Shown here piece after piece: positions 25,142-64,000 of a stretch of 64,000 nucleotides of DNA; position 1 is the first letter of the stretch, and each line of letters opens with the position of its first letter. The translations under genes and the position numbers were made by a program. This DNA comes from Synchiropus splendidus (Eukaryota > Chordata > Actinopteri > Syngnathiformes > Callionymidae): the NCBI RefSeq assembly GCF_027744825.2, contig NC_071339.1, forward strand, positions 27,451,501 through 27,515,500, in the 5' to 3' direction. Under the pieces are notes generated by a model, which did not search any database, was not told where the DNA came from, and worked only from the letters and a program-made list of their open reading frames with translations.

Positions 25142-28100
25142 AACATTTTTATGTTTGGTGTTCTGGAACCCACCTAATCTCAGGCTGAAAACGCGTTTTC
25201 TGCATTGTGCCATAACTTTTCAGGGAAGCTTCAGAACATGAAATGTTCGCCTCCCACTATAGCAGATAGGGTCTTTCTAGTAGTTGCATATCAAATCTAA
25301 GCTATCTGAAGTGTTTTTCCAAAGTTATCAATATTCTTATGTTTTGCGTTCCGCAATCAACCTAATCTCAGACTGAAAACGTGTTTTCTGCATTGTGCCA
25401 TAACTTTGCAGGGAAACTTCAGAACATGAAATTTTCACCTCCAACTATAGCAGAAATGGTCTTTCTAGTAGTTGCACATCAAATCTAAGCTTTTTGATGT
25501 GTTTTTCCAAAGTTAACACCATTTTTATGTTTGGCGTTCCAGAAACATCCTTATCTCAGGCTGAAAACGCGTTTTACGCAATTTGCCATAACTTTGCAGG
25601 AAAGCTTCAGAACATGAAATTTTTACCTCCCACTATAGCAGAAAGGGTCTTTCTAGTAGTTGCACATCAAATCTAATCTGTCTGAAGTGTTTTTCCAAAG
25701 TTATCAACATTTTTATGTTTGGCGTTCTGGAACCCACCTTATCTCAGGCTGAAAACGCATTTTCTGCATTGTGCCATAACTTTGCAGGAAGACTTCAGAA
25801 CATGAAATTTTCTCCTCCCAGTATAGCAGAAAGGGTATTTCTAGTAGTTGCACATCAAATCTAAGTTGTCTGAAGTGTTTTTCCAAAGTTAACACCATTT
25901 TCATGTTTGGCGTTCCAGAAACAACCTTATCTCAGGCTGACAATGCGTTTTACGCAATTTGCCATAACTTTGCAGGAAAGCTACAGAAAATGAAATTTTA
26001 ACCTCGCACCATAGCAGAAAGGGTCTTTCTAGTAGTTGCACATCAAATCTAAGCTGTCGAAAGTGTTTTTCCAAAGTTATCAACATTTTTATGTTTGGCG
26101 TAACGGAATCGACCTTATCTCCGGCTGAAAACGCGTTTTCTGCATTGTGCCATAACTTTGCAGGGAAACTTCAGAACATGAAATTTTCACCTCCAACTAT
26201 AGCAGAAAGGGTCTTTCTAGTAGTTGCACATCAAATCTAAGCCGTCTGAAGTGTTTTTCCAAAGTTAACACCATTTTCATGTTTGGCGTTCCAGAAACAA
26301 CCTTATCTCAGGCTGACAATGCGTTTTACGCAATTTGCCATAACTTTGCAGGAAAGCTTCAGAAAATGAAATTTTAACCTCGCACCATAGCAGAAAGGGT
26401 CTTTCTAGTAGTTGCACATCAAATCTAAGCTGTCGAAAGTGTTTTTCCAAAGTTATCAACATTTTTATGTTTGGCGTAACGGAATCGACCTTATCTCCGG
26501 CTGAAAACGCGTTTTCTGCATTATGCCATAACATTGCAGGGAAACTTCAGAACATGAAATCTTAACCACCCACTATAGCAGAAAAGGTCATTCTAGTAGT
26601 TGCACATCAAATCTAAGCTGTCTTGAAGTGGTTTTCTAAAGTTATCAACATTTTTATGTTTGGCGTTCCGGAACACACCTCATCTCAGCCTGAAAACGCG
26701 TTTTACATATTTTGCCATAACTTTGCAGGGAAGCTTCAGAACATGAAATTTTAACATCCCACTATAGCAGAAAGGGTCTTTCTAGTAGTTGCACATCAAA
26801 TCAAAGCTGTCTGAAGTGTTTTTCCAAAGTTATCAACATTCTTATGTTTGGCGTACCGGAATCAACCTAATCTCAGGCTGAAAACGCGTTTTCTGCATTG
26901 TGCCATAACTTTGCAGGGAAGCTTCAGAACATGACATTTAAACATCCCACTATAGCAGATAGGGTCTTTCTAGTAGTTGCACATCAAATGTAAGCTGTTT
27001 GAAGTGTTTTTCCAAAGTTATCAACATTTTTATGTTTGGCGTTCCGGAATCAACCTTATCTCTGGCTGAAAACGCGTTTTCTGCATTGTGCCATAACTTT
27101 GCAGGGAAGCTTCAGAACATGAAATGTTCACCTCCCACTATAGCAGAAAGGGTCTCTCTAGTAGCTGCACATCAAATCTAAGCTGTCTGAAGTGTTTTTC
27201 CAAAGTTATCAACATTTTTATGTTTGGCGTTCCGGAACCCACCTTATCTCACTCTGAAAACGCGTTTTCTGCATTGTGCCATAACTTTGCAGGGAAGCTT
27301 CAGAACATGAAAATTTCACCTCCCACTATAGCAGAAAGGGTCTTTCTATAAATTGCACATCAAATCTAAGCTGTCTGAAGTGTTTTACCAAAGCTATCAA
27401 CATTTTTATGTTTGGCGTTCCGAAACGCACCTTATCTCAGGGTGAAAAAGCGTTTTGTGCGATGTGCCATATTTTTGCAGGGAAGCTTCAGTACATTAAA
27501 TTATCACCACCCACTATAACAGAAAGGGTGTTTCTAGTAGTTGCACATCAAATCTAAGCTGTCTGAAGTGTTTTTCCAAACTTATCAATATTTTTGTGTT
27601 AGGCGTACCGGAACCCACCTTATCTCAGGCTGAAAACGCGTTTTCTGCATTGTGCCATAACTTTGCAGGGAAGCTTCAGAACATGAAATTTTCAAATCCC
27701 ACTATCGCAGAAAGGGTCTTTCTCGTAGTTGCACATCAAATCTAAGCTGTCTGAAGTGTTTTTCCAAAGTTATCAACATTTTTATATTTGGCGTTCCGGA
27801 ATCGACCTTATCTCAGGCTGAAAACGTGTTTTAGGCATTGTGCCATAACTTTGCAGGGAAGCTTCAGAACATGAAATTATCACCACCCACTATAGCAGAA
27901 AGGGTCTCTCTAGTAGTCTCACATCAAATCTAAGCTGTCTGAATTGTTTTACCAAAGCTATCAACATTTTTATGTTTGGCGTTCCGAAACGTACCTTATC
28001 TCAGGCTGAAAAAGCGTTTTGTGCGTTGTGCCATAACTTCTCAGGGAAGCTTCAGAACATGAAAATTTTCACCTACCATTATAGCAGAAAGGGTCTTTCG

Positions 28101-31100
28101 AGTAGTTGCACATCAAATCTAAGCTGTCTGAAGTGTTTTACCAAAGCTATCAACATTTTTATGTTTGGCGTTCCGGAATCGACCTTATCTCAGGCTGAAA
28201 ACGCGTTTTACAAATTGTGCCATAACTTTGCAGGGAAGCTTCAGAAAATGAAATTTTCACCTCCCACTATAGCAGAAAGGGTCTTTCTAGTAGTTGCACA
28301 TCAAATCTAAGCCGTCTGAAGTGTTTTTCCAAAGTTATCAACATTTTTATGTTTGGCGTTCCGGAACCCACCTTATCTCATGCTGAAAACGCGTTTTCTG
28401 CATTGTGCCATAACTTTGAAGGAAAGCTTCAGAACATGAAAGTTTCACCTCCCACTATAGCAGAAAGGGTCTTTCTAGGAGTTACACATCAAATCTAAGC
28501 TGTCTGAAGTGGTTTTCCAAAGTTATCAACATTTTTATGTTTGGCGTACCGGAACCCACCTTATCTCAGGCTGAAAATGCGTTTTCTGCATTGTTCCATA
28601 ACTTTGCAGGGAAGCTTCAGAACATGAAATTTTCAACTCACACTATAGCAGAAAGGGTCTTTCTAGCAGTTGCACCTCAAATCTAAGCTGTCTGAAGTGT
28701 TTTTCCAAAGTTAACAACATTTTTTTTTTTGGCGTTCCGGAAAACATCTTATCTCAGGCTGAAAACGCGTTTTCTGCATTGTGCCATAACTTTGCAGGGA
28801 AGCTTCAGAACATCAAATTTTCACCGCCCACTATAGCAGAAAGGGTCTTTCTAGTAGTTGCACGTCAAATCTAAGCTGTCTGAAGTGTTTTTCGAAAGTT
28901 ATCAACATTTTTATGTTTGCCGTTCCGGAACCCACCTTACCTCTGGCTGAAAACGTGTTTTCTGCATTATGCCATAACTTTGAAGGAAAGCTTCAGAACA
29001 CGAAAGTTTCACTTACCACTATAGCAGAAATTGTCTTTCTAGTAGTTGCACATCAAATATAAGCTGTCTGAAGTGTTTTTCCAAAGTTATCAACATTTTT
29101 ATGTTTAGCGTTCTGGAACCCACCTTATGTCAGGCTGGAAACGTCTTTTCTGCGTTGTGCCATAACTTTGCAGGGAAGCTTCAGAATATGAAAATTTCAC
29201 ATTCCACTACAGCAAAAAGGGTCTTTCTGGTAGTTGCACATCAAATCTAAGCTGTCTGAAGTGTTTTTTCCAAAGTTATCAACAATTTTATGTTTAGCGT
29301 TCTGGAACCCACCTTATGTCAGGCTGGAAACGTCTTTTCTGCGTTGTGCCATAACTTTGCAGGGAAGCTTCAGAACATGAAATTTTAACCTCCCACTATA
29401 GCAGAAATGGTCTTTCTAGTAGTTGCACATACAATCTAAGCTGGCTGAAGTGTTTTAACAAAGTTATCAACACTTTTATGTATTGCGTTCCGGAATCGAC
29501 CTTATCTCAGGCTCAAAATGCATTTTCTGCATTGTGCCATAACTTTCCAAGGAAGCTTCTGAACATTAAATTTTAACCTCCCACTATAGCACAAAGGGTC
29601 TTTCTAGTAGTTGCACATCAAATCTAAGCTGTCTGATGTGTTGTTCCAAAGTGATCAACATTTTTACTTTTGGCGTTCCGGAATCGACCTTATCTCAGCC
29701 TGAAAACGCGTTTTACGCATTGTGCCATAACTTCTCAGGGAAGCTTCAGAACAGGAAATGTTCACCTCCCACTATAGCAGAAATGGTCTTTCTAGTAGTT
29801 GCACGTCAAATCTAAGCTGTCTGACGTGTTTTTCCAAAGTTAACAACATTTTTATGTTTGGCGTTCCGGAATCAACCTTATCTAAGGCTGAAAACGCGTT
29901 TTCTGCATTGTGCCATCACTTTGCTGGAAAGCGGCAATATATGAAATTTTCACCTCCCACTATAGCAGAAAGGGTCTTTCTAGTAGTTGCACATCAAATC
30001 TAAGCTGTCTGAAGTGTTTTTCCAAAGTTATCAATATTTTTATGCTTGGCGTTCTGAAACCCACGTTATCTCAGGCTGAAAACGCGTTTCCTGCATTGTG
30101 CCATAACATTGCAGGGAAGCTTCAGAACATGAAATTTTCACCTCCCACCATAGCAGAAAGGGTCTTTCGAGTAGTTACACATCAAATCTTAGCTGTCTGA
30201 AGTGTTTTTCCAAAGTTATCAACATTTTTATGTTCGGCGTTCCGGAACCCACCTTATCTCAGGCTGTGAGCGCCTTTTCTGCATTGTGCCATAACTTTGG
30301 AGGGAAGCTTCAGAACATGAAATTTTCAATAACCATTATAGCAGAAAGGGTCTTTCTAGTAGTTGCACATCAAATCTAACCTGTCTGAAGTCTTTTTCCA
30401 AAGTTATCAACATTCTTATGTTTGGCGTTCCGGAATCAACCTTATGTCAGGCTGAAAACGCGTTTTACGCATTGAGCCATAACTTTGCAAGGAAGCTTCA
30501 GAACATAAAAATTTCACATCCCACTATAGCAGAAAGGGTATTTCTAGTAGTTACACTTCAAATCTAAGCTGTCTGATGTGTTTTTTCGAAAGTTATCAAC
30601 ATTTTTATGTTTGGCGTTCCGGAATCGACCTTATCTCAGGCTGAAAACGTGTTTTCTGCATTGTTCCATAACTGTGCAGGGAAGCTTCAGAACATGAAAT
30701 GTTCACCTCCCACTATAGCAGAAAGGGACTTTTTAGTAGTTGCACATCATATCTATGCTGTCTGAAGTGTTTTTCCAAAAGTTGTCAACATTTTTATGTT
30801 TGGCGTTCCGAAACCCACCTTATCTCAGTCTGCAAACGTGTTTTTTGCATTGTGCCATAACTTTGCAGGGAAGCCTCAGAACATGACATTTTCACCTGCC
30901 GCTATAATAGCAAGGGTCTTTCTAGTAGTTGCACATCAAATCTAAGCTGTCTGAAGTGTTTTTCCAAAGTTATCAACATTTTTATGTTTGGCGTTCCGGA
31001 ATCGACCTTATCTCAGGCTGAAAACGCGTTTTCTGCATTGTGCCATAACTTTGCAGGGAAGCTTCAGAACATGAAATTATCACCACCCACTATAGCAGAA

Positions 31101-34100
31101 AGGGTCTTTCTAGTAGTTGCACATCAAATCTAAGTTGTCTGAATTGTTTTTCCAAAGTTATCAACATTTTTATGTTTGGTGTTCCGGAACCCACCTTATC
31201 TCATGCTGAAAACGCATTTTCTGCATTGTGCCATGACTTTGCAGGGAAGCTTCAGAACATGAAATTTTCACCTCCCACTATAGCAGAAAGCGTGTTTCTA
31301 GTAGTTGCACATAAAATCTAAGCTGTCTGAAGTGTTTTTCCAAACTTATCAATATTTTTGTGTTAGGCGTTCCGGAACCCACCTTATCTCAGGCTGAAAA
31401 CGCGTTTTCTACATTGTGCCATAACTTTGCAGGGAAGCTTCAGAACATGAAGTTTTCACCTCTCACTATCGCAGAAAGGGTCTTTCTAGTAGTTGCACAT
31501 CTAATCTAAGCTCTCTGAAGTGTTTTTCCAAAGTTATCAACATTTTTATGTTTGGCGTTCCGGAACCCACCTTATCGCACGATGAAAACACGTTTTCTGC
31601 ATTGTGCCATAACTTTGCAGGGAAACTTCAGAACATGAAAATTTCACATCCCACTATAGCAGAATGGGTCTTTCTAGTAGTTGCACATCAAATCTAAGCT
31701 GTCTGAATTGTTTTTCCAAAGTTATTAACATTTTTATGTTTGGCGTTCCGGAACCCACCTTATCGCACGATGAAAACACGTTTTCTGCATTGTGCCATAA
31801 CTTTGCAGGGAAGCTTCAGAACATGAAAATTTCACATCCCACTATAGCAGAATGGGTCTTTCTAGTAGTTGCACATCAAATCTAAGCTGTCTGAATTGTT
31901 TTTCCAAAGTTATCATCATTTTTATGTTTGGCGTTCTGGAATCGACCTTATCTCAGGCTGAAAACGCGAATTCTGCATTGTGCCATAACTTCAGAGGGAA
32001 GCTTCAGAACATGAAATTATCACCACCCACTATAGCAGAAAGGGTCTTTCTAGTAGATGCACATCAAATCTAAGCTGTCTGAATTGTTTTGCCAAAGTTA
32101 TCAACATTTTTATGTTTGGCGTTCCGGAACCCACCTTATCTCAGGCTGAAAACGCATTTTCAGCATTGTGCCATGACTTTGCAGGGAAGCTTCAGAACAT
32201 GAAATTTTCACCTCCCACTATAGCAGAAAGGGTCTTTCTAGTAGTTGCACATCAAACGTAAGCTGTCTGAAGTGTTTTTCCAAAGTTGTCAACTTTTTTA
32301 TGTTTGGTGTTCCGGAATCGACCTTATCTCAGGCTGAAAACGCGTTTTCTGCGTTGTGCCATGACTTTGCAGGGAAGCTTCAGAACATGAAATTTTCACC
32401 TCCCACTATAGCAGAAAGGGTCTTTGTAGTAGTTGCACATCAAATCTAAGCTGTCTGAAGTGTTTTTCGAAAGTTATCAACATTTTTATGTTTGGCGTTC
32501 AAGAACCCACCTTATCTCAGTTTTAAAATGCGTTTTCTGCGTTGTGCCATAACTTTGCAGGGAAGCTTCAGAACATGAAATTTTCACATCCCACTATAGC
32601 AGAAAGGGTCTTTCTAGTAGTTGCACATCAAATCTAAGCTGTCTGAAGTGTTTTTCCAAAGTTATCAACATTTTTATGTTTGGCGTTCTGGAATCGACCT
32701 TATCTCAGGCTGAAAACGTGTTTTACACATTGTGCCATAACTTTGCAGGGAAGCTTCAGAACATGAAATTATCACCACCCACTACAGCAGAAAGGGTCTT
32801 TCTAGTAGTTGCACATCAAATGTAAGCTGTCTGAATTGCTTTTCCAAAGTTATCAAGATTTTTATGTTTGGCGTTCCGGAACCCACCTTATCTCACGCTG
32901 AAAACGCGTTTTCTGCACTGTGCCATAACTTTGCAGGGAAGCTTCAGAACATGAAATTTTCACCTCCCACTATAGCAGAAATGGTCTTTCTAGAAATTGC
33001 ACATCAAATCTAAGCTGTCTGAAGTGTTTTCCAAAAGTTATCAACATTTTTATGTTTGGCGTTCCGGAATCGACATTATCTCAGGCTGAAAACGCAAATT
33101 CTGCATTGTGCCATAACTTTGCAGGGAAGCTTCAGAACATGAAATTTTCACCTCCCACTATAGCAGAAAGCGTGTTTCTAGTAGTTGCACATAAAATCTA
33201 AGCTGTCTGAAGTGTTTTTCCAAACTTATCAATATTTTTGTGTTTGGCGTTCCGGAACCCACCTTATGTCAGGCTGAAAACGCGTTTTCTGCATTGTGCC
33301 ATAACTTTGCAGGGAAGCTTCAGAACATGACATTTTCACATCCCACTATCGCAGAAAGGGTCTTTCTCGTAGTTGCACATCAAATCTAAGCTGTCTGAAG
33401 TGTTTTTCCAAAGTTATCAACATTTTTATGTTTGGCGTTCCGGAATCGACCTTATCTCAGGCTGAAAACGTGTTTTAGGCATTGTGCCATAACTTTGCAG
33501 GGAAGCTTCAGAACATGACATTTTCACATCCCACTATCGCAGAAAGGGTCTTTCTCGTAGTTTCACATCAAATCTAAGCTGTCTGAAGTGTTTTTCCAAA
33601 GTGATCAACATTTTTATGTTTGGCGTTCCGGAACCCACCTTATCTCAGGCTGAAAAAGCGTTTTGTGCGTTGTGCCATAACTTCTCTGGGAAGCTTCAGA
33701 ACATGAAATTTTCACCTACCATTATAGCAGAAAGGGTCTTTCGAGTAGTTGCACATCAAATCTAAGCTGTCTGAAGTGTTTTTCGAAAGCTATCAACATT
33801 TTTATGTTTGGTGTTCCGAAACCCTCCTTATCTCAGGCTGAAAACGCGTTTTGTGCATTGTGCCATAACTTCTCAGGGAAGCTTTTGATCTCCCACTATA
33901 GCAGAAAGGGTCATTCTAGCAGTTGCAGCACAAATCTAAGCTGTCTGAAGTGCTTTTCGAAAGTTATCAACATTTTTATGTTTGGCGTTCCGAGACCCAC
34001 CTTATCTCAGACTGAAAACCCGTTTTCTGCATTCTGCCACAACTTCTCAGGGACGCTTCAGAATATGACATTTTCACATTCCACTATAGCAGAAAGGGGT

Positions 34101-34141
34101 TTTCTAGTAGTTACAGAACAAATCTAAGCTGTCTGAAGTGT
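25142..34141 (+). repeat. 188-bp satellite array, second left block (about 48 monomers)
   Basis: Continuation of the same array in the same orientation and phase after the LTR-like insertion. Local duplications are visible: 26041-26520 repeats the preceding dimer at a 376-bp offset, 31561-31680 recurs at +188, and 29105-29160 recurs at +189. Units near 25320-25680 match units near 18180-18540, including the variant AACACCATTTTTATG, so related unit types are dispersed. From 27781 onward the sequence is also the outer part of the left inverted-repeat arm. Confidence 0.96.
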
Positions 34142-34641
34142 TTTTAGAGGGTTGTCAATAATTTTATTTTTGTCGGTCTGTAAACTACCTTTCCTTTGGC
34201 TTAAAATGCATTTTATGCACTGTTTATTCACTGCTCTGGGATGCCTGTGAACAGGAAAATTTCTCATGCAACTATAGGAGAAACACTCTTTCTTGTATAA
34301 TAAACACTAAACCTACTTTTCGGAACTGTATTTCCGGGGGTTATCAACCTTTTTTTTTTTTTCTTCGTCAGAAACTCCTCTCTTCACTCACTGCTCTGGG
34401 ATTCCTCACAACATGAAAATTTCATCTGCAACAATAGGATAAACACTCTTTTTTGTATATTCAACACTAAACCTACATTTCTGAACGGTATTTCTGGTGG
34501 TTAACTTTTTTTTTGTGGTCTGAAACCCAGCTTTTGACGGGCTGAAAAGGCATTTTCTGCACTGTTCACTCACTGATCGGAATAGCCTCTGAACATGAAA
34601 ATATCACGCACAACTATAGGAAAAAGAGCCTTTCTAGTGTG
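34142..34641 (+). repeat. Decayed edge monomers of the satellite
   Basis: About three monomers that keep the skeleton of the unit (GTTATCAA, GCTGAAAA, TTTTCTGCACTGTTCACTCA, GAACATGAAAAT, CAACTATAGGA) but differ heavily from the bulk array. They carry expanded T runs near 34350 and 34505 and have lost the HindIII-type AAGCTT. They share features with the isolated monomers at 36374-36581 and 46797-47127, such as TTCACTCACTGCTC and TATTCAACACTAAACCTAC, and so form an older subfamily. The array stops after CCTTTCTAGTG. Confidence 0.9.
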
Positions 34642-35281
34642 ACGCCCACTTATGTGTGGTCACAGATTGTGTGTTAGATGTCATTTAATTGTTCAGCATG
34701 GAGTTGATTAACCGGCAGGTATATAATTAGGTCAGTAGAGAGCAGGATAGGACAGAGGTTGGGCATTGAAGATGTGTGGGTAAATAGGAAGTGACACTTT
34801 TTTTCATTACTTTTCTTCCCATCGCCAAATGTGGAAGCCTCGTATGACTCTGTCCACATTCTGTTTCAGGTTAGTCAAATCCATTTTTTTATAATGTTTG
34901 TTCCACTTGGGATTGACTGATTCTGAGTCTGAGTGTGAGGATGGTGACTCAATTTTTAAGTATACTGTTTTTCCTTCGTGCGTTGAGTTCGCTCTGTGTG
35001 GATGTGGCGCTTGTAAGCTAATACTGACAACCGACGTTGACATGGCACGGGTGATTGAGTTGTGTGGAGTTCAGTTTGCTTGTGGTGAATAACGGTGTTT
35101 GGTAAAAAGTAAGGTTTTATTATTTCTCAACACTAGCCAAAAGGTTTAATGGCAGAATTATACATTCAGATGAAAAGCAATTATGCATGTCGTTCATGAT
35201 GTCTAACACTTGTCGTATGACAAAGTGACATGTTTGTGAGTGATCAGATGGTGTCAGAAAGACATCTAATTGTGGTCTGGG
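34642..35281. other. Low-copy-looking intergenic stretch, mirrored at 55371-56011
   Basis: No recognisable coding or transposon domain. It contains a minus-strand frame of 78 codons (34807-35043, serine-rich and ending in a basic, tryptophan-rich tail) that I cannot assign and do not trust as a gene. The segment at about 34804-34873 resembles 35305-35376 (both contain the ACTCTGTCC-CATTTTGTTTCAG type motif), a direct repeat about 505 bp apart. Whatever this region is, it is present identically in both arms. Confidence 0.6.
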
Positions 35282-35845
35282 TTACCACAATGAAAAAAAA
35301 AGAATCCCTTGGATTACTTTTCTCACCATCGACACATGTGGAAGCCTTGTGTGACTCTGTCCGCATTTTGTTTCAGACGGCGTTCTACTAACCACATTGA
35401 GACACCACTTTTTAACTGTAGACAAGGTCACAGTATTCAGACCTGTTACAGATGCAAAGTTTTTGATACAACGTTTTCTTCCTAAGCTTTTAGAGTGAGC
35501 AGAGGTGAGAGCAGCCGACTGGTCTCTCCAAGAGGTGTAACGATGATCAGCACGGCTATGATTTGGATTGCTAGGGTCACCCTGCCCCTTCGAACAGCGA
35601 CGGTGTTCCCCCATGGGCAGCGGCTGTGTGTGGAGTAGGCGCCACGAGCAGAGCACCAGGCTGACGGACTGTTGAAACTCCAAAATTTCTGGGAGAGTGA
35701 GAGAGGTTCTGCGATGGATGAGCCGGTCCACGGAGCTCATAAAGAGCGCGATGATGTTCTCAAGCGCTATGAGCTGGTTGCCGACGGCGTAAACACCATT
35801 CCTCTGCGCTATGGTGGCTCTGTCAGAGGTGGTTTGGATGGTCAT
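35282..35845 (-). pseudogene. DIRS-related ORF1 (gag-like) fragment, left arm
   Basis: A 187-codon open frame, exactly mirrored at 54807-55370. Residues about 16-70 contain NQLIALENIIALFMSSVD followed by a helix-rich, arginine/leucine-rich stretch. The same peptide core appears at 37982-38285 and, more weakly, the downstream DNA (GGAGAGACCAGTCGGCTGC) recurs at 47170-47230. I therefore read it as the first open frame of a DIRS-related retroelement found in several partial copies here, not as a host gene. The C-terminal third, after SKSLGRK, crosses into unrelated sequence and is probably not original. Assignment to DIRS rests on linkage to RT fragments with DIRS motifs. No function is claimed beyond gag-like. 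Confidence 0.5.
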
Positions 35846-38285: not shown

Positions 38286-38386
38286 CGGCTGAGTGAGAGG
38301 GAACGCTGGCCCATAACTCCAAACCCTCCACCAATTAAGCTCCGTACCTGACCACGTGCGGTCCTAGTGCCAGTGGAGTGTCAGAA

Positions 38387-52265: not shown

Positions 52266-52366
52266 TTCTGACACTCCACTGGCACTAGGACCGCACGTGG
52301 TCAGGTACGGAGCTTAATTGGTGGAGGGTTTGGAGTTATGGGCCAGCGTTCCCTCTCACTCAGCCG

Positions 52367-52848: not shown

Positions 52849-53631
52849 TTGACATCGTCTCAGGAGACCAAGCAGAATAGTAACGGTCTCTCTGCCTCTT
52901 TATCCCTGATGCCAGAACTGTCCCTGGGGAAGTTTCTGGAGCCAAGAAGTTATGTCTTTCCCCAGATTCACCATAATAAGAAGCACAGGCGTCAAATAAC
53001 TCTTTCCCGTCTCACAACAGATCCCGGTTCCAGCCAAAAGTCAGGGAAGTTTCAATTCAGCTATTGACTCTTCTTATTGCTCAGACACGCCAGTTTCCAG
53101 CAGGGGTCGCCACAGGACCGTGAAAGCCACCACTTCAGAGGATCACTCAGTAGGTGCTACTTGCCAGACCTGCTCTGTTCTCAGCTCCCTCGTGCGATGT
53201 CTGATGTGATGTCTGTCTGTTATTCTGTTCTCTGCAGCCCTCCAATCCTCTCAGAGGCAAGCAGGACATCGTCATCTACAGAGTCATCTCTTTCTGAGGA
53301 TGATTGGGCCAGTCCCTCGGGTCTCCATCTTAGGAGAATTGCAGTGTCAGATCAAGGTACACTGCAAGTTTGGGGAACCGAATTCCTCTGACGGCTCAGA
53401 TGACAAAAGCGAGTCTGTTTTTGACAAACCAGACTTGAAGTCACCAGAGGAGAGGGCGCAGAGCACCAACGACCCTTTCGTCCTTGACCCGCCCTGGAGG
53501 CCAGATCCGCTCCTGTGCTCAGGGCGCCTGTCTCCTCACCTCCACATATGGATTGAGAAAATAAACGGTCATTGACACGCCCTTCAGCTTCACAGTCAAC
53601 CCCCAGGTTCTGCGTCACCACATGGACCTGA
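52849..53631 (+). pseudogene. DIRS-related gag/linker region, right arm
   Basis: Mirror of 37021-37803. Frames 53077-53391 and 53300-53575 overlap and encode Ser/Asp/Glu-rich and proline-rich stretches (TESSLSEDDWASPSG; EPNSSDGSDDKSES), then a stop. Position directly upstream of the RT suggests the C-terminal part of a gag-like protein. No catalytic motif is present. Confidence 0.5.
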
Positions 53632-54070
53632 GTGAACTCAGAGAACGAGCGGTCATGTCTGATGGAGGAGGACCGCGATCTCCTGTCAAAGGAAATAATC
53701 GAGCTACTGCCAAAGCGATCCTCCTACACTGGGTTTTACTCCGGGTTCTTTCTGGAACCCAAGAAGACAGGAGAGAGGAGACCTGTTCTGGATCTCAGTC
53801 TCCTCAACCAATTCATGATCAGACAGCGGTTCCGGACTACCAGCAGATTCCTGGAGTGAATCATAGTGTGAGAGTGTATGACCTCCATAGATCTTGCAGA
53901 CGTCTACTTCCACAACACGGTCTCTAGTGTCTAGGGCCTCGTTTTTTCGCTAAGTGCATGGAGGAGTGGCTCGAACTACGAAGGAGAGAGAGTCTGCCGA
54001 TTATGACGTACTTGGACTGCTGGTTGATTCTAGCCAGAGTCCAAACAGGAGTCATGAGCGCACACCAGCT
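53632..54070 (+). pseudogene. DIRS-type reverse transcriptase fragment, right arm
   Basis: Mirror of 36582-37020 with the same defects. The fingers region is at 53650-53815 (GFYSGFFLEPKKTGERRPVL), motif A is MTSIDLADVYFH at about 53878-53915 in another frame, and the catalytic box YLDCWL lies near 54006-54024. The region between motif A and the catalytic box is deleted. The piece ends at CACACCAGCT, where a satellite monomer starts at 54071. Confidence 0.8.
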
Positions 54071-54278
54071 TAGCAGAAGGGGTCTTTCTAGTAGCTGCAG
54101 AACAAATTCAATTGCAAATTCAATTTTTATGTCTGTTGGTCTGAAAGCTACAGGTCCCTCGGGCTGAAAACCCATTTTCTGCACTGTTCACTCACTGCTC
54201 AGCGAAGCCTCAGAACATGAAAATTTCACCTGCAACTATAGCGAAAAAACTATTTAGAGTATATTCAACAGTAAACCT
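54071..54278 (+). repeat. Isolated decayed satellite monomer, right arm
   Basis: Mirror of 36374-36581. In + orientation it is opposite to the array of the same arm (minus), so it is not a stray edge unit of that array. Confidence 0.85.
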
Positions 54279-54806
54279 CTGCAAATAGGGCGCTGCGACT
54301 GGCCTACAAGCAGTCGAACCGTTCCACATTTTCTTCTTCCAAGCCATGGGATGAGTTTGACGAGTGCCAGGCGCTGCTATGAGTTGGATCTGTAGACTGT
54401 GTTCCCAGACTTGGTTGAGTTCCGTACGGTGGAGTCAGGTTCCTGCTTGATCTTCTCCTGCGCCTCATGTCATCCGCCAAAGTCGTATCAAAGTCAACTT
54501 CGATACGACGCTCTCTCTCCACCAGAAGCTCAAAAATCATCCCTCTTCACTAACGGCCAGCTGGCGTTGGATGGCGAGACCACATACAGATCACGACCGC
54601 ATGTTGTCTGCCCACAACTGGAAGAAATCTGGACTATTCCCGGCGCGGTTCTGACACTCCACTGGCACTAGGACCGCACTTGGTCAGGTACGGAGCTTAC
54701 TGCCACGTGGAGGGTTTGGATTGGCAGTGCGGCATTCCGGCTCACTCAGTCGTCATGCACAATGCCTGATGCGTTCGCCCCGGGATCTCGACCTCTCCTC
54801 TGAGGA
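54279..54806 (+). other. DIRS-related decayed segment, right arm
   Basis: Mirror of 35846-36373. 54627-54806 resembles 52249-52400 (shared GGACTATTCCCGGCGC, CTGGCACTAGGACCGCAC and GGTCAGGTACGGAGCTTA), which marks the start of a second element copy in the same orientation. The remainder shows no recognised domain. Confidence 0.55.
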
Positions 54807-55370
54807 ATGACCATCCAAACCACCTCTGACAGAGCCACCATAGCGCAGAGGAATGGTGTTTACGCCGTCGGCAACCAGCTCATAGCGCTTGAGAACATCA
54901 TCGCGCTCTTTATGAGCTCCGTGGACCGGCTCATCCATCGCAGAACCTCTCTCACTCTCCCAGAAATTTTGGAGTTTCAACAGTCCGTCAGCCTGGTGCT
55001 CTGCTCGTGGCGCCTACTCCACACACAGCCGCTGCCCATGGGGGAACACCGTCGCTGTTCGAAGGGGCAGGGTGACCCTAGCAATCCAAATCATAGCCGT
55101 GCTGATCATCGTTACACCTCTTGGAGAGACCAGTCGGCTGCTCTCACCTCTGCTCACTCTAAAAGCTTAGGAAGAAAACGTTGTATCAAAAACTTTGCAT
55201 CTGTAACAGGTCTGAATACTGTGACCTTGTCTACAGTTAAAAAGTGGTGTCTCAATGTGGTTAGTAGAACGCCGTCTGAAACAAAATGCGGACAGAGTCA
55301 CACAAGGCTTCCACATGTGTCGATGGTGAGAAAAGTAATCCAAGGGATTCTTTTTTTTTCATTGTGGTAA
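54807..55370 (+). pseudogene. DIRS-related ORF1 fragment with longer insert, right arm
   Basis: Mirror of 35282-35845, identical in all codons. Residues about 1-20 (MTIQTTSDRATIAQRNGVYA) precede the shared NQLIALENIIALFMSSVD core, followed by LIHRRTSLTLPEILEFQQS, which is absent from the 52367 copy. The tail beyond SKSLGRK is not shared with the other copies. It is an open frame, but its gag-like identity is inferred only from linkage. Confidence 0.5.
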
Positions 55371-56010
55371 CCCAGACCACAATTAGATGTCTTTCTGACA
55401 CCATCTGATCACTCACAAACATGTCACTTTGTCATACGACAAGTGTTAGACATCATGAACGACATGCATAATTGCTTTTCATCTGAATGTATAATTCTGC
55501 CATTAAACCTTTTGGCTAGTGTTGAGAAATAATAAAACCTTACTTTTTACCAAACACCGTTATTCACCACAAGCAAACTGAACTCCACACAACTCAATCA
55601 CCCGTGCCATGTCAACGTCGGTTGTCAGTATTAGCTTACAAGCGCCACATCCACACAGAGCGAACTCAACGCACGAAGGAAAAACAGTATACTTAAAAAT
55701 TGAGTCACCATCCTCACACTCAGACTCAGAATCAGTCAATCCCAAGTGGAACAAACATTATAAAAAAATGGATTTGACTAACCTGAAACAGAATGTGGAC
55801 AGAGTCATACGAGGCTTCCACATTTGGCGATGGGAAGAAAAGTAATGAAAAAAAGTGTCACTTCCTATTTACCCACACATCTTCAATGCCCAACCTCTGT
55901 CCTATCCTGCTCTCTACTGACCTAATTATATACCTGCCGGTTAATCAACTCCATGCTGAACAATTAAATGACATCTAACACACAATCTGTGACCACACAT
56001 AAGTGGGCGT
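55371..56010. other. Low-copy-looking intergenic stretch, right arm
   Basis: Mirror of 34642-35281. It carries the unassigned 78-codon frame 55609-55845 (+), which ends in TNLKQNVDRVIRGFHIWRWE. The DNA of that ending resembles 55277-55345 about 505 bp upstream. No domain is recognised. Confidence 0.6.
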
Positions 56011-56510
56011 CACACTAGAAAGGCTCTTTTTCCTATAGTTGTGCGTGATATTTTCATGTTCAGAGGCTATTCCGATCAGTGAGTGAACAGTGCAGAAAAT
56101 GCCTTTTCAGCCCGTCAAAAGCTGGGTTTCAGACCACAAAAAAAAAGTTAACCACCAGAAATACCGTTCAGAAATGTAGGTTTAGTGTTGAATATACAAA
56201 AAAGAGTGTTTATCCTATTGTTGCAGATGAAATTTTCATGTTGTGAGGAATCCCAGAGCAGTGAGTGAAGAGAGGAGTTTCTGACGAAGAAAAAAAAAAA
56301 AAGGTTGATAACCCCCTGAAATACAGTTCCGAAAAGTAGGTTTAGTGTTTATTATACAAGAAAGAGTGTTTCTCCTATAGTTGCATGAGAAATTTTCCTG
56401 TTCACAGGCATCCCAGAGCAGTGAATAAACAGTGCATAAAATGCATTTTAAGCCAAAGGAAAGGTAGTTTACAGACCGACAAAAATAAAATTATTGACAA
56501 CCCTCTAAAA
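56011..56510 (-). repeat. Decayed edge monomers, right array
   Basis: Mirror of 34142-34641: three old-type units at the inner edge of the right array, with A runs where the left has T runs. Confidence 0.9.
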
Positions 56511-57471
56511 ACACTTCAGACAGCTTAGATTTGTTCTGTAACTACTAGAAAACCCCTTTCTGCTATAGTGGAATGTGAAAATGTCATATTCTGAAGCGTC
56601 CCTGAGAAGTTGTGGCAGAATGCAGAAAACGGGTTTTCAGTCTGAGATAAGGTGGGTCTCGGAACGCCAAACATAAAAATGTTGATAACTTTCGAAAAGC
56701 ACTTCAGACAGCTTAGATTTGTGCTGCAACTGCTAGAATGACCCTTTCTGCTATAGTGGGAGATCAAAAGCTTCCCTGAGAAGTTATGGCACAATGCACA
56801 AAACGCGTTTTCAGCCTGAGATAAGGAGGGTTTCGGAACACCAAACATAAAAATGTTGATAGCTTTCGAAAAACACTTCAGACAGCTTAGATTTGATGTG
56901 CAACTACTCGAAAGACCCTTTCTGCTATAATGGTAGGTGAAAATTTCATGTTCTGAAGCTTCCCAGAGAAGTTATGGCACAACGCACAAAACGCTTTTTC
57001 AGCCTGAGATAAGGTGGGTTCCGGAACGCCAAACATAAAAATGTTGATCACTTTGGAAAAACACTTCAGACAGCTTAGATTTGATGTGAAACTACGAGAA
57101 AGACCCTTTCTGCGATAGTGGGATGTGAAAATGTCATGTTCTGAAGCTTCCCTGCAAAGTTATGGCACAATGCCTAAAACACGTTTTCAGCCTGAGATAA
57201 GGTCGATTCCGGAACGCCAAACATAAAAATGTTGATAACTTTGGAAAAACACTTCAGACAGCTTAGATTTGATGTGCAACTACGAGAAAGACCCTTTCTG
57301 CGATAGTGGGATGTGAAAATGTCATGTTCTGAAGCTTCCCTGCAAAGTTATGGCACAATGCAGAAAACGCGTTTTCAGCCTGACATAAGGTGGGTTCCGG
57401 AACGCCTAACACAAAAATATTGATAAGTTTGGAAAAACACTTCAGACAGCTTAGATTTGATGTGCAACTAC

Positions 57472-58224
57472 TAGAAACACCCTTTCTGTTATCGTGGGTG
57501 GTGATAATTTAATGTACTGAAGCTTCCCTGCAAAAATATGGCACAATGCAGAATTCGCATTTTCAGACTGAGATAAGGTCGATTCCAGAACGCCAAAAAT
57601 AAAAAAAGTTGATAACTTAGGAAAAACACTTCAGACAGCTTAGATTTGATGTGCAACTACTAGAAAGACCCTTTCTGCGATAGTGGGAGGTGAAAATTTC
57701 ATGTTCTGAAGCTTCCCTGCAAAGTTATGGCACAATGCAGAAAACGCGTTTTCAGCGTGAGATAAGGTGGGTTCCGGAATGTCAAACATAAAAATGTTCA
57801 TAACTTTGGAAAAACAATTCAGACAGCTTAGATTTGATGTGCAACTACTAGAAAGACCCTTTCTGCTATAGTGGGTGGTGATAATTTCATGTTCTGAAGC
57901 TTCCCTGCAAAGTTATGGCACAATGCGTGAAACACGTTTTCAGCCTGAGATAAGGTCGATTTCGGAACGCCAAACATAAAAATGTTGATAACTTTGGAAA
58001 AACACTTCAGACAGCTTAGATTTGATGTGCAACTACTGGAAAGACCCTTTCTGCGATAGTGAGAGGTGAAATTTTCATGTTCTGAAGCTTCCCTGCAAAG
58101 TTATGGCACAATGCAGAAAACGCGTTTTCAGCCTGAGATAAGGTGGGTTCCGGAACGCCTAACACAAAAATATTGATAAGTTTGGAAAAACACTTCAGAC
58201 AGCTTAGATTTTATGTGCAACTAC
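57472..58224 (-). repeat. Four extra satellite units in the right arm
   Basis: 753 bp with no partner in the left arm: 57471 pairs with 33181, and 58225 onward pairs with 33180 and below. One of the extra units carries the rare variant GTACTGAAGCTTC with TAATTTAATG, which also occurs at 27480-27540 of the left array. The unit type is therefore old, and the left arm may have lost it by unequal exchange. Confidence 0.85.
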
Positions 58225-61044
58225 TAGAAACACGCTTTCTGCTATAGTGGGAGGTGAAAATTTCATGTTCTGAAGCTTCCCTGCAAAGTTATGGCACAAT
58301 GCAGAATTTGCGTTTTCAGCCTGAGATAATGTCGATTCCGGAACGCCAAACATAAAAATGTTGATAACTTTTGGAAAACACTTCAGACAGCTTAGATTTG
58401 ATGTGCAATTTCTAGAAAGACCATTTCTGCTATAGTGGGAGGTGAAAATTTCATGTTCTGAAGCTTCCCTGCAAAGTTATGGCACAGTGCAGAAAACGCG
58501 TTTTCAGCGTGAGATAAGGTGGGTTCCGGAACGCCAAACATAAAAATCTTGATAACTTTGGAAAAGCAATTCAGACAGCTTACATTTGATGTGCAACTAC
58601 TAGAAAGACCCTTTCTGCTGTAGTGGGTGGTGATAATTTCATGTTCTGAAGCTTCCCTGCAAAGTTATGGCACAATGTGTAAAACACGTTTTCAGCCTGA
58701 GATAAGGTCGATTCCAGAACGCCAAACATAAAAATGTTGATAACTTTGGAAAAACACTTCAGACAGCTTAGATTTGATGTGCAACTACTAGAAAGACCCT
58801 TTCTGCTATAGTGGGATGTGAAAATTTCATGTTCTGAAGCTTCCCTGCAAAGTTATGGCACAACGCAGAAAACGCATTTTAAAACTGAGATAAGGTGGGT
58901 TCTTGAACGCCAAACATAAAAATGTTGATAACTTTCGAAAAACACTTCAGACAGCTTAGATTTGATGTGCAACTACTACAAAGACCCTTTCTGCTATAGT
59001 GGGAGGTGAAAATTTCATGTTCTGAAGCTTCCCTGCAAAGTCATGGCACAACGCAGAAAACGCGTTTTCAGCCTGAGATAAGGTCGATTCCGGAACACCA
59101 AACATAAAAAAGTTGACAACTTTGGAAAAACACTTCAGACAGCTTACGTTTGATGTGCAACTACTAGAAAGACCCTTTCTGCTATAGTGGGAGGTGAAAA
59201 TTTCATGTTCTGAAGCTTCCCTGCAAAGTCATGGCACAATGCTGAAAATGCGTTTTCAGCCTGAGATTAGGTGGGTTCCGGAACGCCAAACATAAAAATG
59301 TTGATAACTTTGGCAAAACAATTCAGACAGCTTAGATTTGATGTGCATCTACTAGAAAGACCCTTTCTGCTATAGTGGGTGGTGATAATTTCATGTTCTG
59401 AAGCTTCCCTCCGAAGTTATGGCACAATGCAGAATTCGCGTTTTCAGCCTGAGATAAGGTCGATTCCAGAACGCCAAACATAAAAATGATGATAACTTTG
59501 GAAAAACAATTCAGACAGCTTAGATTTGATGTGCAACTACTAGAAAGACCCATTCTGCTATAGTGGGATGTGAAATTTTCATGTTCTGAAGCTTCCCTGC
59601 AAAGTTATGGCACAATGCAGAAAACGTGTTTTCATCGTGCGATAAGGTGGGTTCCGGAACGCCAAACATAAAAATGTTAATAACTTTGGAAAAACAATTC
59701 AGACAGCTTAGATTTGATGTGCAACTACTAGAAAGACCCATTCTGCTATAGTGGGATGTGAAATTTTCATGTTCTGAAGTTTCCCTGCAAAGTTATGGCA
59801 CAATGCAGAAAACGTGTTTTCATCGTGCGATAAGGTGGGTTCCGGAACGCCAAACATAAAAATGTTGATAACTTTGGAAAAACACTTCAGAGAGCTTAGA
59901 TTAGATGTGCAACTACTAGAAAGACCCTTTCTGCGATAGTGAGAGGTGAAAACTTCATGTTCTGAAGCTTCCCTGCAAAGTTATGGCACAATGTAGAAAA
60001 CGCGTTTTCAGCCTGAGATAAGGTGGGTTCCGGAACGCCTAACACAAAAATATTGATAAGTTTGGAAAAACACTTCAGACAGCTTAGATTTTATGTGCAA
60101 CTACTAGAAACACGCTTTCTGCTATAGTGGGAGGTGAAAATTTCATGTTCTGAAGCTTCCCTGCAAAGTCATGGCACAATGCAGAAAATGCGTTTTCAGC
60201 CTGAGATAAGGTCGATTCCGGAACGCCAAACATAAAAATGTTGATAACTTTGGAAAAACAATTCAGACAACTTAGATTTGATGTGCAACTACTAGAAAGA
60301 CCCTTTCTGCTATAGTGGGTGGTGATAATTTCATGTTCTGAAGCTTCCCTGCAAAGTTATGGCACAATGCAGAAAACGCGTTTTCAGCCTGAGATAAGGT
60401 CGATTCCGGAACGCCAAACATAAAAATGTTGATAACTTTGGAAAAACACTTCAGACAGCTTAGATTTGATGTGCAACTACTAGAAAGACCCTTGCTATTA
60501 TAGCGGCAGGTGAAAATGTCATGTTCTGAGGCTTCCCTGCAAAGTTATGGCACAATGCAAAAAACACGTTTGCAGACTGAGATAAGGTGGGTTTCGGAAC
60601 GCCAAACATAAAAATGTTGACAACTTTTGGAAAAACACTTCAGACAGCATAGATATGATGTGCAACTACTAAAAAGTCCCTTTCTGCTATAGTGGGAGGT
60701 GAACATTTCATGTTCTGAAGCTTCCCTGCACAGTTATGGAACAATGCAGAAAACACGTTTTCAGCCTGAGATAAGGTCGATTCCGGAACGCCAAACATAA
60801 AAATGTTGATAACTTTCGAAAAAACACATCAGACAGCTTAGATTTGAAGTGTAACTACTAGAAATACCCTTTCTGCTATAGTGGGATGTGAAATTTTTAT
60901 GTTCTGAAGCTTCCTTGCAAAGTTATGGCTCAATGCGTAAAACGCGTTTTCAGCCTGACATAAGGTTGATTCCGGAACGCCAAACATAAGAATGTTGATA
61001 ACTTTGGAAAAAGACTTCAGACAGGTTAGATTTGATGTGCAACT

Positions 61045-61420
61045 ACTAGAAAGACCCTTTCTGCTATAGTGGGAGGTGAAAATTTCATGTTCTGAAGATT
61101 CCCTGCAAAGTTATGGCACAATGCAGAAAACGCGTATTCAGCCTGAGATAAGGTCGATTCCGAAACGCCTAACATAAAAATGTTGATAACTTTGGAAAAA
61201 CACTTCAGACAGCTTAGATTTGGTGTGCAACAACTAGAAAGACCCTTTCTGCTATAGTGGGAGTTGAAAATGTCATGTTCTGAAGCTTCCATGCAAAGTT
61301 ATGGCACATTGCAGAAAACGCGTTTTCAGCCTGAAATAAGGTCGATTCAGGAACGCCAAACACAAAAATGTTGAAAACTTTCAAAAAACACTTCAGACAG
61401 TTTAGATTTGAAGTGCAAGT
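61045..61420 (-). repeat. Two extra satellite units in the right arm
   Basis: 376 bp with no partner in the left arm: 60985-61044 pairs with 30361-30420, and 61421-61480 pairs with 30301-30360. The extra dimer carries an 88-codon satellite ORF (61026-61292) that the left arm lacks. Confidence 0.85.
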
Positions 61421-64000
61421 ACGAGAAAGACCCTTTCTGCTATAATGGTTATTGAAAATTTCATGTTCTGAAGCTTCCCTCCAAAGTTATGGCACAATGC
61501 AGAAAACGCGCTCACAGCCTGAGATAAGGTGGGTTCCGGAACGCCAAACATAAAAATGTTGATAACTTTGGAAAAACACTTCAGACAGCTAAGATTTGAT
61601 GTGTAACTACTCGAAAGACCCTTTCTGCTATGGTGGGAGGTGAAAATTTCATGTTCTGAAGCTTCCCTGCAATGTTATGGCACAATGCAGGAAACGCGTT
61701 TTCAGCCTGAGATAACGTGGGTTTCAGAACGCCAAGCATAAAAATATTGATAACTTTGGAAAAACACTTCAGACAGCTTAGATTTGATGTGCAACTACTA
61801 GAAAGACCCTTTCTGCTATAGTGGGAGGTGAAAATTTCATATTCTGCCGCTTTCCAGCAAAGTGATGGCACAATGCAGAAAACGCGTTTTCAGCCTTAGA
61901 TAAGGTTGATTCCGGAACGCCAAACATAAAAATGTTGTTAACTTTGGAAAAACACGTCAGACAGCTTAGATTTGACGTGCAACTACTAGAAAGACCATTT
62001 CTGCTATAGTGGGAGGTGAACATTTCCTGTTCTGAAGCTTCCCTGAGAAGTTATGGCACAATGCGTAAAACGCGTTTTCAGGCTGAGATAAGGTCGATTC
62101 CGGAACGCCAAAAGTAAAAATGTTGATCACTTTGGAACAACACATCAGACAGCTTAGATTTGATGTGCAACTACTAGAAAGACCCTTTGTGCTATAGTGG
62201 GAGGTTAAAATTTAATGTTCAGAAGCTTCCTTGGAAAGTTATGGCACAATGCAGAAAATGCATTTTGAGCCTGAGATAAGGTCGATTCCGGAACGCAATA
62301 CATAAAAGTGTTGATAACTTTGTTAAAACACTTCAGCCAGCTTAGATTGTATGTGCAACTACTAGAAAGACCATTTCTGCTATAGTGGGAGGTTAAAATT
62401 TCATGTTCTGAAGCTTCCCTGCAAAGTTATGGCACAACGCAGAAAAGACGTTTCCAGCCTGACATAAGGTGGGTTCCAGAACGCTAAACATAAAATTGTT
62501 GATAACTTTGGAAAAAACACTTCAGACAGCTTAGATTTGATGTGCAACTACCAGAAAGACCCTTTTTGCTGTAGTGGAATGTGAAATTTTCATATTCTGA
62601 AGCTTCCCTGCAAAGTTATGGCACAACGCAGAAAAGACGTTTCCAGCCTGACATAAGGTGGGTTCCAGAACGCTAAACATAAAAATGTTGATAACTTTGG
62701 AAAAACACTTCAGACAGCTTATATTTGATGTGCAACTACTAGAAAGACAATTTCTGCTATAGTGGTAAGTGAAACTTTCGTGTTCTGAAGCTTTCCTTCA
62801 AAGTTATGGCATAATGCAGAAAACACGTTTTCAGCCAGAGGTAAGGTGGGTTCCGGAACGGCAAACATAAAAATGTTGATAACTTTCGAAAAACACTTCA
62901 GACAGCTTAGATTTGACGTGCAACTACTAGAAAGACCCTTTCTGCTATAGTGGGCGGTGAAAATTTGATGTTCTGAAGCTTCCCTGCAAAGTTATGGCAC
63001 AATGCAGAAAACGCGTTTTCAGCCTGAGATAAGATGTTTTCCGGAACGCCAAAAAAAAAAATGTTGTTAACTTTGGAAAAACACTTCAGACAGCTTAGAT
63101 TTGAGGTGCAACTGCTAGAAAGACCCTTTCTGCTATAGTGTGAGTTGAAAATTTCATGTTCTGAAGCTTCCCTGCAAAGTTATGGAACAATGCAGAAAAC
63201 GCATTTTCAGCCTGAGATAAGGTGGGTTCCGGTACGCCAAACATAAAAATGTTGATAACTTTGGAAAACCACTTCAGACAGCTTAGATTTGATGTGTAAC
63301 TCCTAGAAAGACCCTTTCTGCTATAGTGGGAGGTGAAACTTTCATGTTCTGAAGCTTTCCTTCAAAGTTATGGCACAATGCAGAAAACGCGTTTTCAGCA
63401 TGAGATAAGGTGGGTTCCGGAACGCCAAACATAAAAATGTTGATAACTTTGGAAAAACACTTCAGACGGCTTAGATTTGATGTGCAACTACTAGAAAGAC
63501 CCTTTCTGCTATAGTGGGAGGTGAAAATTTCATTTTCTGAAGCTTCCCTGCAAAGTTATGGCACAATTTGTAAAACGCGTTTTCAGCCTGAGATAAGGTC
63601 GATTCCGGAACGCCAAACATAAAAATGTTGATAGCTTTGGTAAAACACTTCAGACAGCTTAGATTTGATGTGCAACTACTCGAAAGACCCTTTCTGCTAT
63701 AATGGTAGGTGAAAATTTTCATGTTCTGAAGCTTCCCTGAGAAGTTATGGCACAACGCACAAAACGCTTTTTCAGCCTGAGATAAGGTACGTTTCGGAAC
63801 GCCAAACATAAAAATGTTGATAGCTTTGGTAAAACAATTCAGACAGCTTAGATTTGATGTGAGACTACTAGAGAGACCCTTTCTGCTATAGTGGGTGGTG
63901 ATAATTTCATGTTCTGAAGCTTCCCTGCAAAGTTATGGCACAATGCCTAAAACACGTTTTCAGCCTGAGATAAGGTCGATTCCGGAACGCCAAATATAAA

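What the first reader, a model, noticed from the sequence alone, without database searches (positions are those of the whole stretch)
27781..64000. Giant satellite-armed inverted repeat with a 13.9-kb transposon core
Arms of 10.6 kb (left) and 11.7 kb (right) are reverse complements, with a unit-for-unit match of 188-bp monomers and a mirrored set of open frames. Both arms extend to or beyond the window. A palindrome of this size made of satellite plus element fragments, centred on 45326, is unusual. It could be a centromere- or heterochromatin-edge inversion duplication, or the footprint of a very large mobile unit.
Basis: seen in the sequence. Interest (0 to 1): 0.8.

Follow-up and report, generated by a model that had tools for sequence, protein, structure and literature searches.

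The report
Recent fold-back palindrome in chromosome-end satellite
A stretch of repetitive DNA near one chromosome end appears to have been copied backwards next to itself, making a mirror image over 200 kb across whose joining point can be read to within 21 bases, so it may show how such mirrors form and how satellite DNA changes afterwards.

Summary
The palindrome is in the sequence and is larger than reported. Left arm 401-38386 is the reverse complement of 52266-93444 (window plus 40 kb fetched to its right): ten collinear blocks at 99.7-99.98%, offset by whole 188-bp monomers. A probe 103 kb left of the junction has a 100% mirror 115 kb to the right, so the structure spans at least 231 kb. 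In-register comparison hides this beyond 33245. In this 582.7-Mb genome a unit (satellite, A, core, and A', an old inverted relative of A) recurs near contig ends with fixed polarity. Here the A' side switches into inverted A within a 21-bp tract identical in both, 38366-38386. Of 62 exact A 40-mers on C2-C19, 61 obey the polarity rule; the window's left arm is the exception. Best reading: a recent fold-back or template-switch inverted duplication between inverted, locally 87% identical A and A', leaving a 13.9-kb single-copy spacer; not a mobile unit. A joining error needs long reads to exclude; simple duplication of one sequence is unlikely because the arms differ.

The parts
1..23444 (+). 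Left arm, 188-bp satellite array in the orientation opposed to the usual one at this chromosome end; 401-23444 mirrors right-arm satellite beyond the window
   Evidence: TRF period 188, 124.5 copies; chain blocks at 99.7-99.96% with whole-monomer slips; 1-400 not firmly placed
23445..25136 (.). Non-188-bp interruption of the left array (1.7 kb); mirrored in the right arm 2.8-4.5 kb outside the window, so it predates the duplication
   Evidence: Lies inside block 17766-25891 = 74202-66077 (ext), 3 mismatches in 8,126
25137..34374 (+). Left arm, satellite array next to A
   Evidence: TRF period 188 over 25137-34145
34375..38386 (+). Left copy of A, inverted relative to the other exact A copies on C2-C19; occupies the place of A'
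   Evidence: 0 mismatches of 4,012 with the right copy; opposed polarity
38366..38386 (.). Switch tract: 21 bp identical in A and A'; A-type states at 38361 and 38365, A'-type from 38387 on
   Evidence: Alignment of both arms with A of six and A' of four other loci; hybrid 41-mer in this arrangement only here
38387..52265 (.). Core, the single-copy spacer of the palindrome (13,879 bp); 96.9-99.6% identical, piece by piece, to the same stretch at other loci
38781..42745 (-). Broken Ty3/Gypsy-like pieces (RNase H-like, reverse transcriptase, zinc knuckle)
   Evidence: Pfam RT_RNaseH_2 9.8e-20, RVT_1 9.9e-17, zf-CCHC 3.4e-06
42891..46792 (-). Left half of an older inverted repeat inside the core
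   Evidence: 84-90% in its long pieces to 48691-51645 in the opposite orientation
46794..47127 (+). Diverged satellite-like stretch inside the core
   Evidence: Satellite BLAST
48186..48707 (+). Reverse transcriptase piece, DIRS-like by recalled label
   Evidence: Pfam RVT_1 2.5e-17; one database relative, 48% identity
48691..51645 (+). Right half of the older inverted repeat inside the core
52266..56277 (-). Right copy of A, in the normal polarity for this chromosome end
56278..64000 (-). Right arm, satellite array, followed 40 kb beyond the window and sampled as satellite to 27.60 Mb

Best explanation
This is a recent inverted duplication made by inverted-repeat-mediated fold-back or template switching. 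Ancestral state (seen at other loci): satellite, A, core, A', where A' is an old inverted relative of A. A new or broken strand that had copied the core into the start of A' paired with A in inverted orientation, switched inside a 21-bp identical tract (38366-38386), and copied A, the satellite array and its outer flank for at least 103 kb, replacing the A' side. That left a mirror image around a 13.9-kb single-copy spacer. The arms then diverged mainly by gain or loss of whole satellite monomers. Shown: the arrangement at other loci, the clean switch, arm identity, the broken polarity, the whole-monomer slips. Inferred: that the other loci show the ancestral state, that this is real DNA and not a joining error, that synthesis rather than crossing-over made it, and how the far left end was rejoined to the chromosome.
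For: A-core-A' seen in the 4 other loci fetched far enough, C9, C7, C19, C13 (the other 4 fetched loci stop short of A'). Clean A'-to-A switch in 21 bp, A and A' 86.7-87.1% identical over about 498 bp. Exact A 41-mer at 75 places, A' at 57; 46 of 57 A' have an exact A within 30 kb, 45 of these at 12.2-13.9 kb. Window-type hybrid at 3 places, the other two in normal A orientation. Of 62 exact A 40-mers on C2-C19, 61 obey polarity, the exception being the left arm. The two arms differ at 0 of 4,012 sites of A and share 17 states found in none of 8 other loci (at one of them C21 has a gap). Satellite arms collinear with whole-monomer slips. 100% mirror of a 1,401-bp flank 103 kb out. A single-copy spacer plus a hybrid repeat at the junction is described in PMC3907307 (abstract and passages).
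Against: No read data. At 27.330 Mb the mirror partner is only 98-99% identical, no better than other chromosomes, though this stretch is itself tandemly repeated. Loci on different chromosomes can also be very alike (C9 and C16 satellite flank 99.6%; two left blocks near A match other loci at 96.9 and 98.9%), so identity alone does not prove a local copy. Seven of 18 left blocks match the right array at only 93.8-99.0%. Fold-back alone gives a terminal duplication; here the chromosome continues, so a second event or a switch back is needed. The reciprocal hybrid is absent, which suits synthesis but does not exclude crossing-over with loss.
Confidence: 0.6

Rival explanations
1. Assembly joining error: the assembler or scaffolder joined one haplotype or paralogous copy of the satellite arm to the other in inverted orientation through the A/A' homology.
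For: Satellite at chromosome ends is hard to assemble; 9 of 20 sampled contig ends lie in this satellite; 5 of 24 contig lengths seen are exact multiples of 2,500 (C7, C8, C13, C17, C19), which suggests cuts made on a map grid (inference). The arms could be two alleles.
Against: Not a copy of one read set: arms differ by 51 substitutions in 37,916 compared bases and by ten whole-monomer slips. No N in the window. The switch lies within 21 bp in a gapless stretch, and A/A' are only about 87% alike there, too little for a usual overlap join (inference).
Confidence: 0.22
2. Crossing-over between A' of one unit and A of a second unit in inverted orientation on the same chromosome (an inversion), or a deletion between such units.
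For: Would also give an A/A' hybrid and a reversed-polarity block; further polarity reversals exist on this contig and others.
Against: The reciprocal hybrid 41-mer has 0 exact places. A second unit's A would be expected to differ from this A by about 0.3-0.7% as other loci do (C21 set aside as structurally different); observed 0 of 4,012, with 17 shared private states.
Confidence: 0.12
3. Footprint of a giant mobile element with inverted terminal repeats.
For: Exact A 41-mers lie on all 18 of the contigs C2-C19 and A' on 17 of them, and the core contains retroelement pieces.
Against: Fixed polarity relative to the contig end in 66 of 66 A 41-mers and 49 of 49 A' 41-mers on C2-C19; satellite on the A side in all 8 other loci fetched; A and A' only about 87% alike at the junction; one inverted A-A pair seen.
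Confidence: 0.03
4. Symmetric U-type sister-chromatid exchange followed by breakage of a dicentric chromosome.
For: Gives long mirrored arms.
Against: As described in PMC3907307 (passages) a U-type fusion lacks a single-copy spacer; here the spacer is 13.9 kb and the junction is a hybrid repeat.
Confidence: 0.03

Closest known systems
Human fold-back inverted duplications (PMC3907307; abstract and passages seen)
   Same: Mirrored arms; single-copy spacer (there 766-70,466 bp in 21 sequenced junctions, a figure legend listing 14,779 bp; here 13,879 bp); in 3 of those 21 a hybrid of inverted repeats at the junction (82-95% identical Alu or L1 pairs; here about 87%).
   Different: Those lie next to terminal deletions or translocations in patients; here satellite DNA in a reference assembly, with the chromosome continuing beyond the far end.
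DUP-TRP/INV-DUP rearrangements at inverted repeats (PMC4352052; abstract and outline seen)
   Same: Homology- or homeology-driven template switch between inverted repeats.
   Different: Copy number and the second junction are not known here.
Macro-dyad symmetries of Tribolium satellites (PMC13081366; abstract and passages seen)
   Same: Satellite arrays that reverse orientation, tens of kilobases, in putative (peri)centromeric DNA.
   Different: There many arrays with conserved inversion sites; here one event with a 13.9-kb non-satellite centre and arms collinear block by block. That paper states such symmetries were documented only in Tribolium.
Ape subterminal caps: pCht satellite with segmental-duplication spacers (PMC12154684; abstract and passages seen)
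   Same: Satellite at many chromosome ends interrupted by a spacer of about 30 kb, with near-identical caps on nonhomologous chromosomes.
   Different: No sequence comparison made; the term 'inverted' does not occur in that text. The unit here carries an internal inverted pair (A, A').

Membership tests
Fold-back inverted duplication | Reverse-complement arms of near identity | tested here: met
Fold-back inverted duplication | Single-copy spacer between arms | tested here: met
   Core 38387-52265 is not mirrored at arm identity; its inner inverted repeat is only 84-90% and is part of the unit elsewhere. True copy number untested (no reads)
Fold-back inverted duplication | Inverted homology at the spacer boundary, hybrid at junction | tested here: met
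   A/A' hybrid, 21-bp switch tract
Fold-back inverted duplication | Terminal deletion, translocation or healed end at the far side | tested here: inconclusive
   Far left end not reached; normal polarity at 27.067 Mb, reversed at 27.250 and 27.330 Mb
Satellite macro-dyad symmetry (Tribolium type) | Multi-kilobase inverted satellite subarrays | tested here: met
Satellite macro-dyad symmetry (Tribolium type) | Recurrent, conserved inversion sites | tested here: not met
   For this inversion site: one inverted A-A pair among 73 exact A 40-mers; copies with a changed base are missed, and other kinds of reversal were not studied
Mobile element with terminal inverted repeats | Orientation independent of host site | tested here: not met
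   66 of 66 A and 49 of 49 A' 41-mers follow one polarity rule on C2-C19
Mobile element with terminal inverted repeats | Target-site duplication | not tested
   No empty site known
Assembly artefact | No spanning reads, abnormal depth | not testable with these tools
   No reads held

The most novel reading that the evidence does not exclude
The dispersed A-core-A' unit is a built-in fold-back site. With 57 exact A' 41-mers, 46 of them near an exact A, on the contigs of most chromosomes, it would repeatedly seed mirrored satellite arms, and this locus is one caught soon after firing; the other polarity reversals (C6 25.96 Mb, C14, C23) would be older or decayed events. If so, satellite macro-dyads outside Tribolium can arise by fold-back at embedded quasi-palindromes, and their arms are a paired clock of satellite turnover.
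Probability: 0.2. Interest if true: 0.7.

Novelty: new member of a known kind. Interest (0 to 1): 0.5.

Why it matters
How satellite arrays reverse direction, and how fast monomer number changes compared with point change, are hard to read because the starting state is usually unknown. Here the likely starting arrangement is present at other chromosome ends, the switch is placed within 21 bp, and two satellite arms that (by this reading) started alike can be compared monomer by monomer: ten whole-monomer slips (25 monomers gained on the right or lost on the left, 1 the other way) against 50 substitutions in 32,775 compared satellite and interruption bases. If long reads confirm it, it is a test bed for satellite turnover and for fold-back repair in heterochromatin.

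Tried and rejected
First view: in-register identity drops to 85-97% beyond 33245, from which I first concluded (note) that the true arm was only 5.2 kb and the outer satellite match was background., which allow slips, overturned this.

Mobile-unit reading: rejected on polarity. Inversion by reciprocal crossing-over: the reciprocal 41-mer was sought and has 0 exact places. Rfam at gathering scores and tRNA/tmRNA: none. Pfam: 5 of 10 frames matched, 0 of 10 further frames at E 0.1, so what A encodes, if anything, is unknown. Relatives of the DIRS-like piece: 1 protein, no help in naming the species. Literature for a 188-bp fish satellite: 5 papers listed, none fitting by title; a six-term search for satellite orientation switches gave 0 papers. 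That the host may be a teleost is a recalled impression, not tested. Three samples left of 27.25 Mb did not show the expected unit there: one matched satellite-like sequence at 72-83%, two matched nothing held. C21 carries a structural difference that ruins its alignment (13% mismatch), so the A comparisons rest on 7 good loci plus C21. Dropped before counting: the outermost 61-bp chain piece at window 1-61, 46 monomers off; the 418-bp piece at 50-467 was kept only for the first slip. Blocks overlap by up to 27 bases at their ends.
Full report
OBSERVATION. The window is C6:27451501-27515500 of an unnamed 582.7-Mb genome in 96 contigs, with no N in the window. A 188-bp satellite fills 1-23444 and 25137-34145 on the plus strand and 56768-64000 on the minus strand by TRF, with BLAST margins to 34638 and from 56014. 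The arms meet the core at 38386 and 52266 as reported. In register they are 99.98% identical for 5,141 bp (33246-38386), with 1 mismatch; further out identity is 85-97% per 200-bp bin.

THE ARMS ARE LONGER THAN THEY LOOK. Eighteen 940-bp blocks of the left array (ten near A, eight taken at every third step of 1-23444) match the right array (window plus 40 kb beyond it) at 98.6% on average, 11 of 18 at 99.6-100% and the other 7 at 93.8-99.0%. The best matches elsewhere in the left array, and in eight other loci, average 92.9% each; two blocks near A reach 96.9 and 98.9% in other loci. Chaining exact matches of 60 bases or more gives ten collinear blocks covering left 401-38386 (except about 200 bases at 17566-17765) and right 93444-52266 at 99.7-99.98%. 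Between them are shifts of whole monomers, from the outside in: 7, 1, 1, 1, 1, 7, -1, 1, 2, 4, the first measured from a short outermost piece at 50-467. The 1.7-kb interruption at 23445-25136 is mirrored too. Compared base by base, the blocks out to 33244 carry 50 mismatches and 2 gaps in 32,775 sites, and the inner block 1 in 5,141. A 1,401-bp non-satellite flank at C6:27387000 has a 100% mirror at 27617082-27618482, inside the range I had written down before seeing the answer (note); the best of the other 39 matches listed scored 2496 bits against 2527 (40 of 347 candidates were scored). So the palindrome spans at least 231 kb. At 27.330 Mb polarity is still reversed, but the mirror partner (27.688 Mb) is only 98-99% identical, in a tandem repeat where partners are ambiguous. 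At 27.250 Mb an A'-like stretch is in reversed polarity, but samples further left do not show the rest of a unit. The flank at 27.067 Mb is in normal polarity. The far end is therefore unplaced between 27.07 and 27.39 Mb.

THE ARRANGEMENT ELSEWHERE. At C9, C7, C19 and C13, the 4 of 8 other loci fetched far enough, the satellite is followed by A (window 56277 to 52047), the core, and then A', a diverged inverted relative of A, where the window has A again. Over the shared stretch the window is 96.9-99.6% identical to the eight loci, piece by piece, most long pieces at 98.4-99.5%; C16, C13, C21 and C6b also lack or repeat some pieces. An exact A 41-mer occurs at 75 places and the A' 41-mer at 57. 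46 of 57 A' have an exact A within 30 kb, 45 of them at 12.2-13.9 kb. On contigs C2-C19, 66 of 66 A and 49 of 49 A' follow one rule: A points plus in the first half of the contig and minus in the second, lying 0.01-6.7 Mb from the nearer end. A second A-specific 40-mer occurs at 73 places; of the 62 on C2-C19, 61 obey and the window's left arm is the one exception, and it forms the only inverted A-A pair within 60 kb. The small contigs (9 of 75, 8 of 57, 11 of 73 places) have no known orientation and were left out of the rule. Exact patterns miss copies with a changed base, so counts are lower bounds.

THE JUNCTION. Aligned with A of six and A' of four other loci, the left arm carries A states up to 38365 and A' states from 38387 on, with 21 identical bases between and no patchwork. 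A and A' are 86.7-87.1% identical over about 498 bp there, so a 21-bp identical tract is not rare in itself; the clean single switch is the point. The hybrid 41-mer has three exact places, the window and two others in normal A orientation, which look like A copies with one changed base (not examined further). The reciprocal hybrid has none. Over 4,012 bp of A the arms have no difference, while other loci differ from them by 0.58-0.72% and from one another by 0.33-0.56%, C21 set aside. Seventeen states are shared by both arms and absent from all eight other loci (C21 has a gap at one), 11 of them clustered at 34844-34926, perhaps a conversion tract. The satellite flank of 1,128 bp, gap columns set aside, is 99.9% between arms, 92.9-97.4% between arms and other loci, and 92.5-99.6% among other loci.

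MECHANISM. The simplest account is synthesis-driven. A strand that had copied the core into A' switched to A in inverted orientation and copied outward. PMC3907307 (abstract and passages) reports a similar signature in human inverted duplications: a single-copy spacer of 0.8-70 kb in all 21 sequenced junctions, with hybrid inverted repeats 82-95% identical in three of them, and argues that U-type fusion leaves no spacer. PMC4352052 (abstract and outline) describes homeology-driven template switches at inverted repeats. PMC10766186 (abstract and outline) offers an origin-dependent variant. What is shown here is the arrangement at other loci, the switch and the arms. What is inferred is reality versus joining error, synthesis versus crossing-over, and the repair of the far end.

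CORE. Broken Ty3/Gypsy-like frames on the minus strand at 38.8-42.7 kb, a reverse transcriptase piece at 48186-48707 that looks DIRS-like (recalled label), and an older inverted repeat 42.9-46.8 versus 48.7-51.6 kb at 84-90%. The unit is thus itself an old, decayed quasi-palindrome into which a Gypsy-like element appears to have inserted, later spread among chromosome ends (inference).

CONTEXT. A satellite 50-mer has 26,304 exact places. At 68 hits in about 818 monomers' length of held satellite, interruptions included, this suggests roughly 10% of the genome, a rough figure. Of 20 contig ends sampled, 9 lie in this satellite: C2, C5, C8, C9, C17 and C22 start in plus satellite, C23 starts in minus, C6 and C10 end in minus; C7 and C12 start in CCCTAA repeats. 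C1 shows 20 of these 50-mers, in its middle, minus then plus then two minus, as a fused pair of satellite ends might. So the satellite is probably pericentromeric or on short chromosome arms (inference).

PRIOR WORK. Satellite arrays mirrored over tens of kilobases are described in Tribolium, and that paper states they were documented only there (PMC13081366, passages). A search for macro-dyad with satellite found two papers; the one passage of the second that I saw, its only place with the term, is a citation of the first. Near-identical satellite-plus-spacer blocks on nonhomologous chromosome ends are known in apes (PMC12154684, passages). I found no report of this particular locus; the searches were made, in one open-licence library, with the species unknown to me.

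VERDICT. Sequence feature confirmed and enlarged; by anatomy a member of a known kind (fold-back type inverted duplication) in an unusual place, with an unusually readable junction. The main doubt is the lack of reads.

Noticed in passing
G000 C6 ~25.96 Mb (+), C14 693031 (-), C23 313-316 kb (+) versus 1374298 (-): Other reversals of polarity of the chromosome-end repeats, none with an exact inverted A-A pair; possibly older mirror events.
   Followed up: no
G000 C1 37.60-40.63 Mb: The 20 satellite 50-mers listed on the longest contig seen lie in its middle, 13 minus, then 5 plus, then 2 minus, as at a fused pair of satellite ends.
   Followed up: no
window 34844-34926: Eleven of 17 states private to both arms cluster in 83 bp, a likely conversion tract from another repeat.
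   Followed up: no
window 42891-46792 and 48691-51645: Older inverted repeat inside the core at 84-90%, part of the dispersed unit.
   Followed up: partly
window 23445-25136: 1.7-kb interruption of the satellite with its own short tandem repeats (26/51-bp and 47-bp units), also in the right arm.
   Followed up: partly
C12:21821821 (-) and C13:18243035 (-): Two A-orientation copies carry the A'-type base at the diagnostic site.
   Followed up: no
left arm versus right arm, 401-33244: Substitutions are denser in the outer part (29 in 11,513 sites from 401 to 11886) than inward (20 in 20,706 from 12410 to 33244); cause unknown.
   Followed up: no
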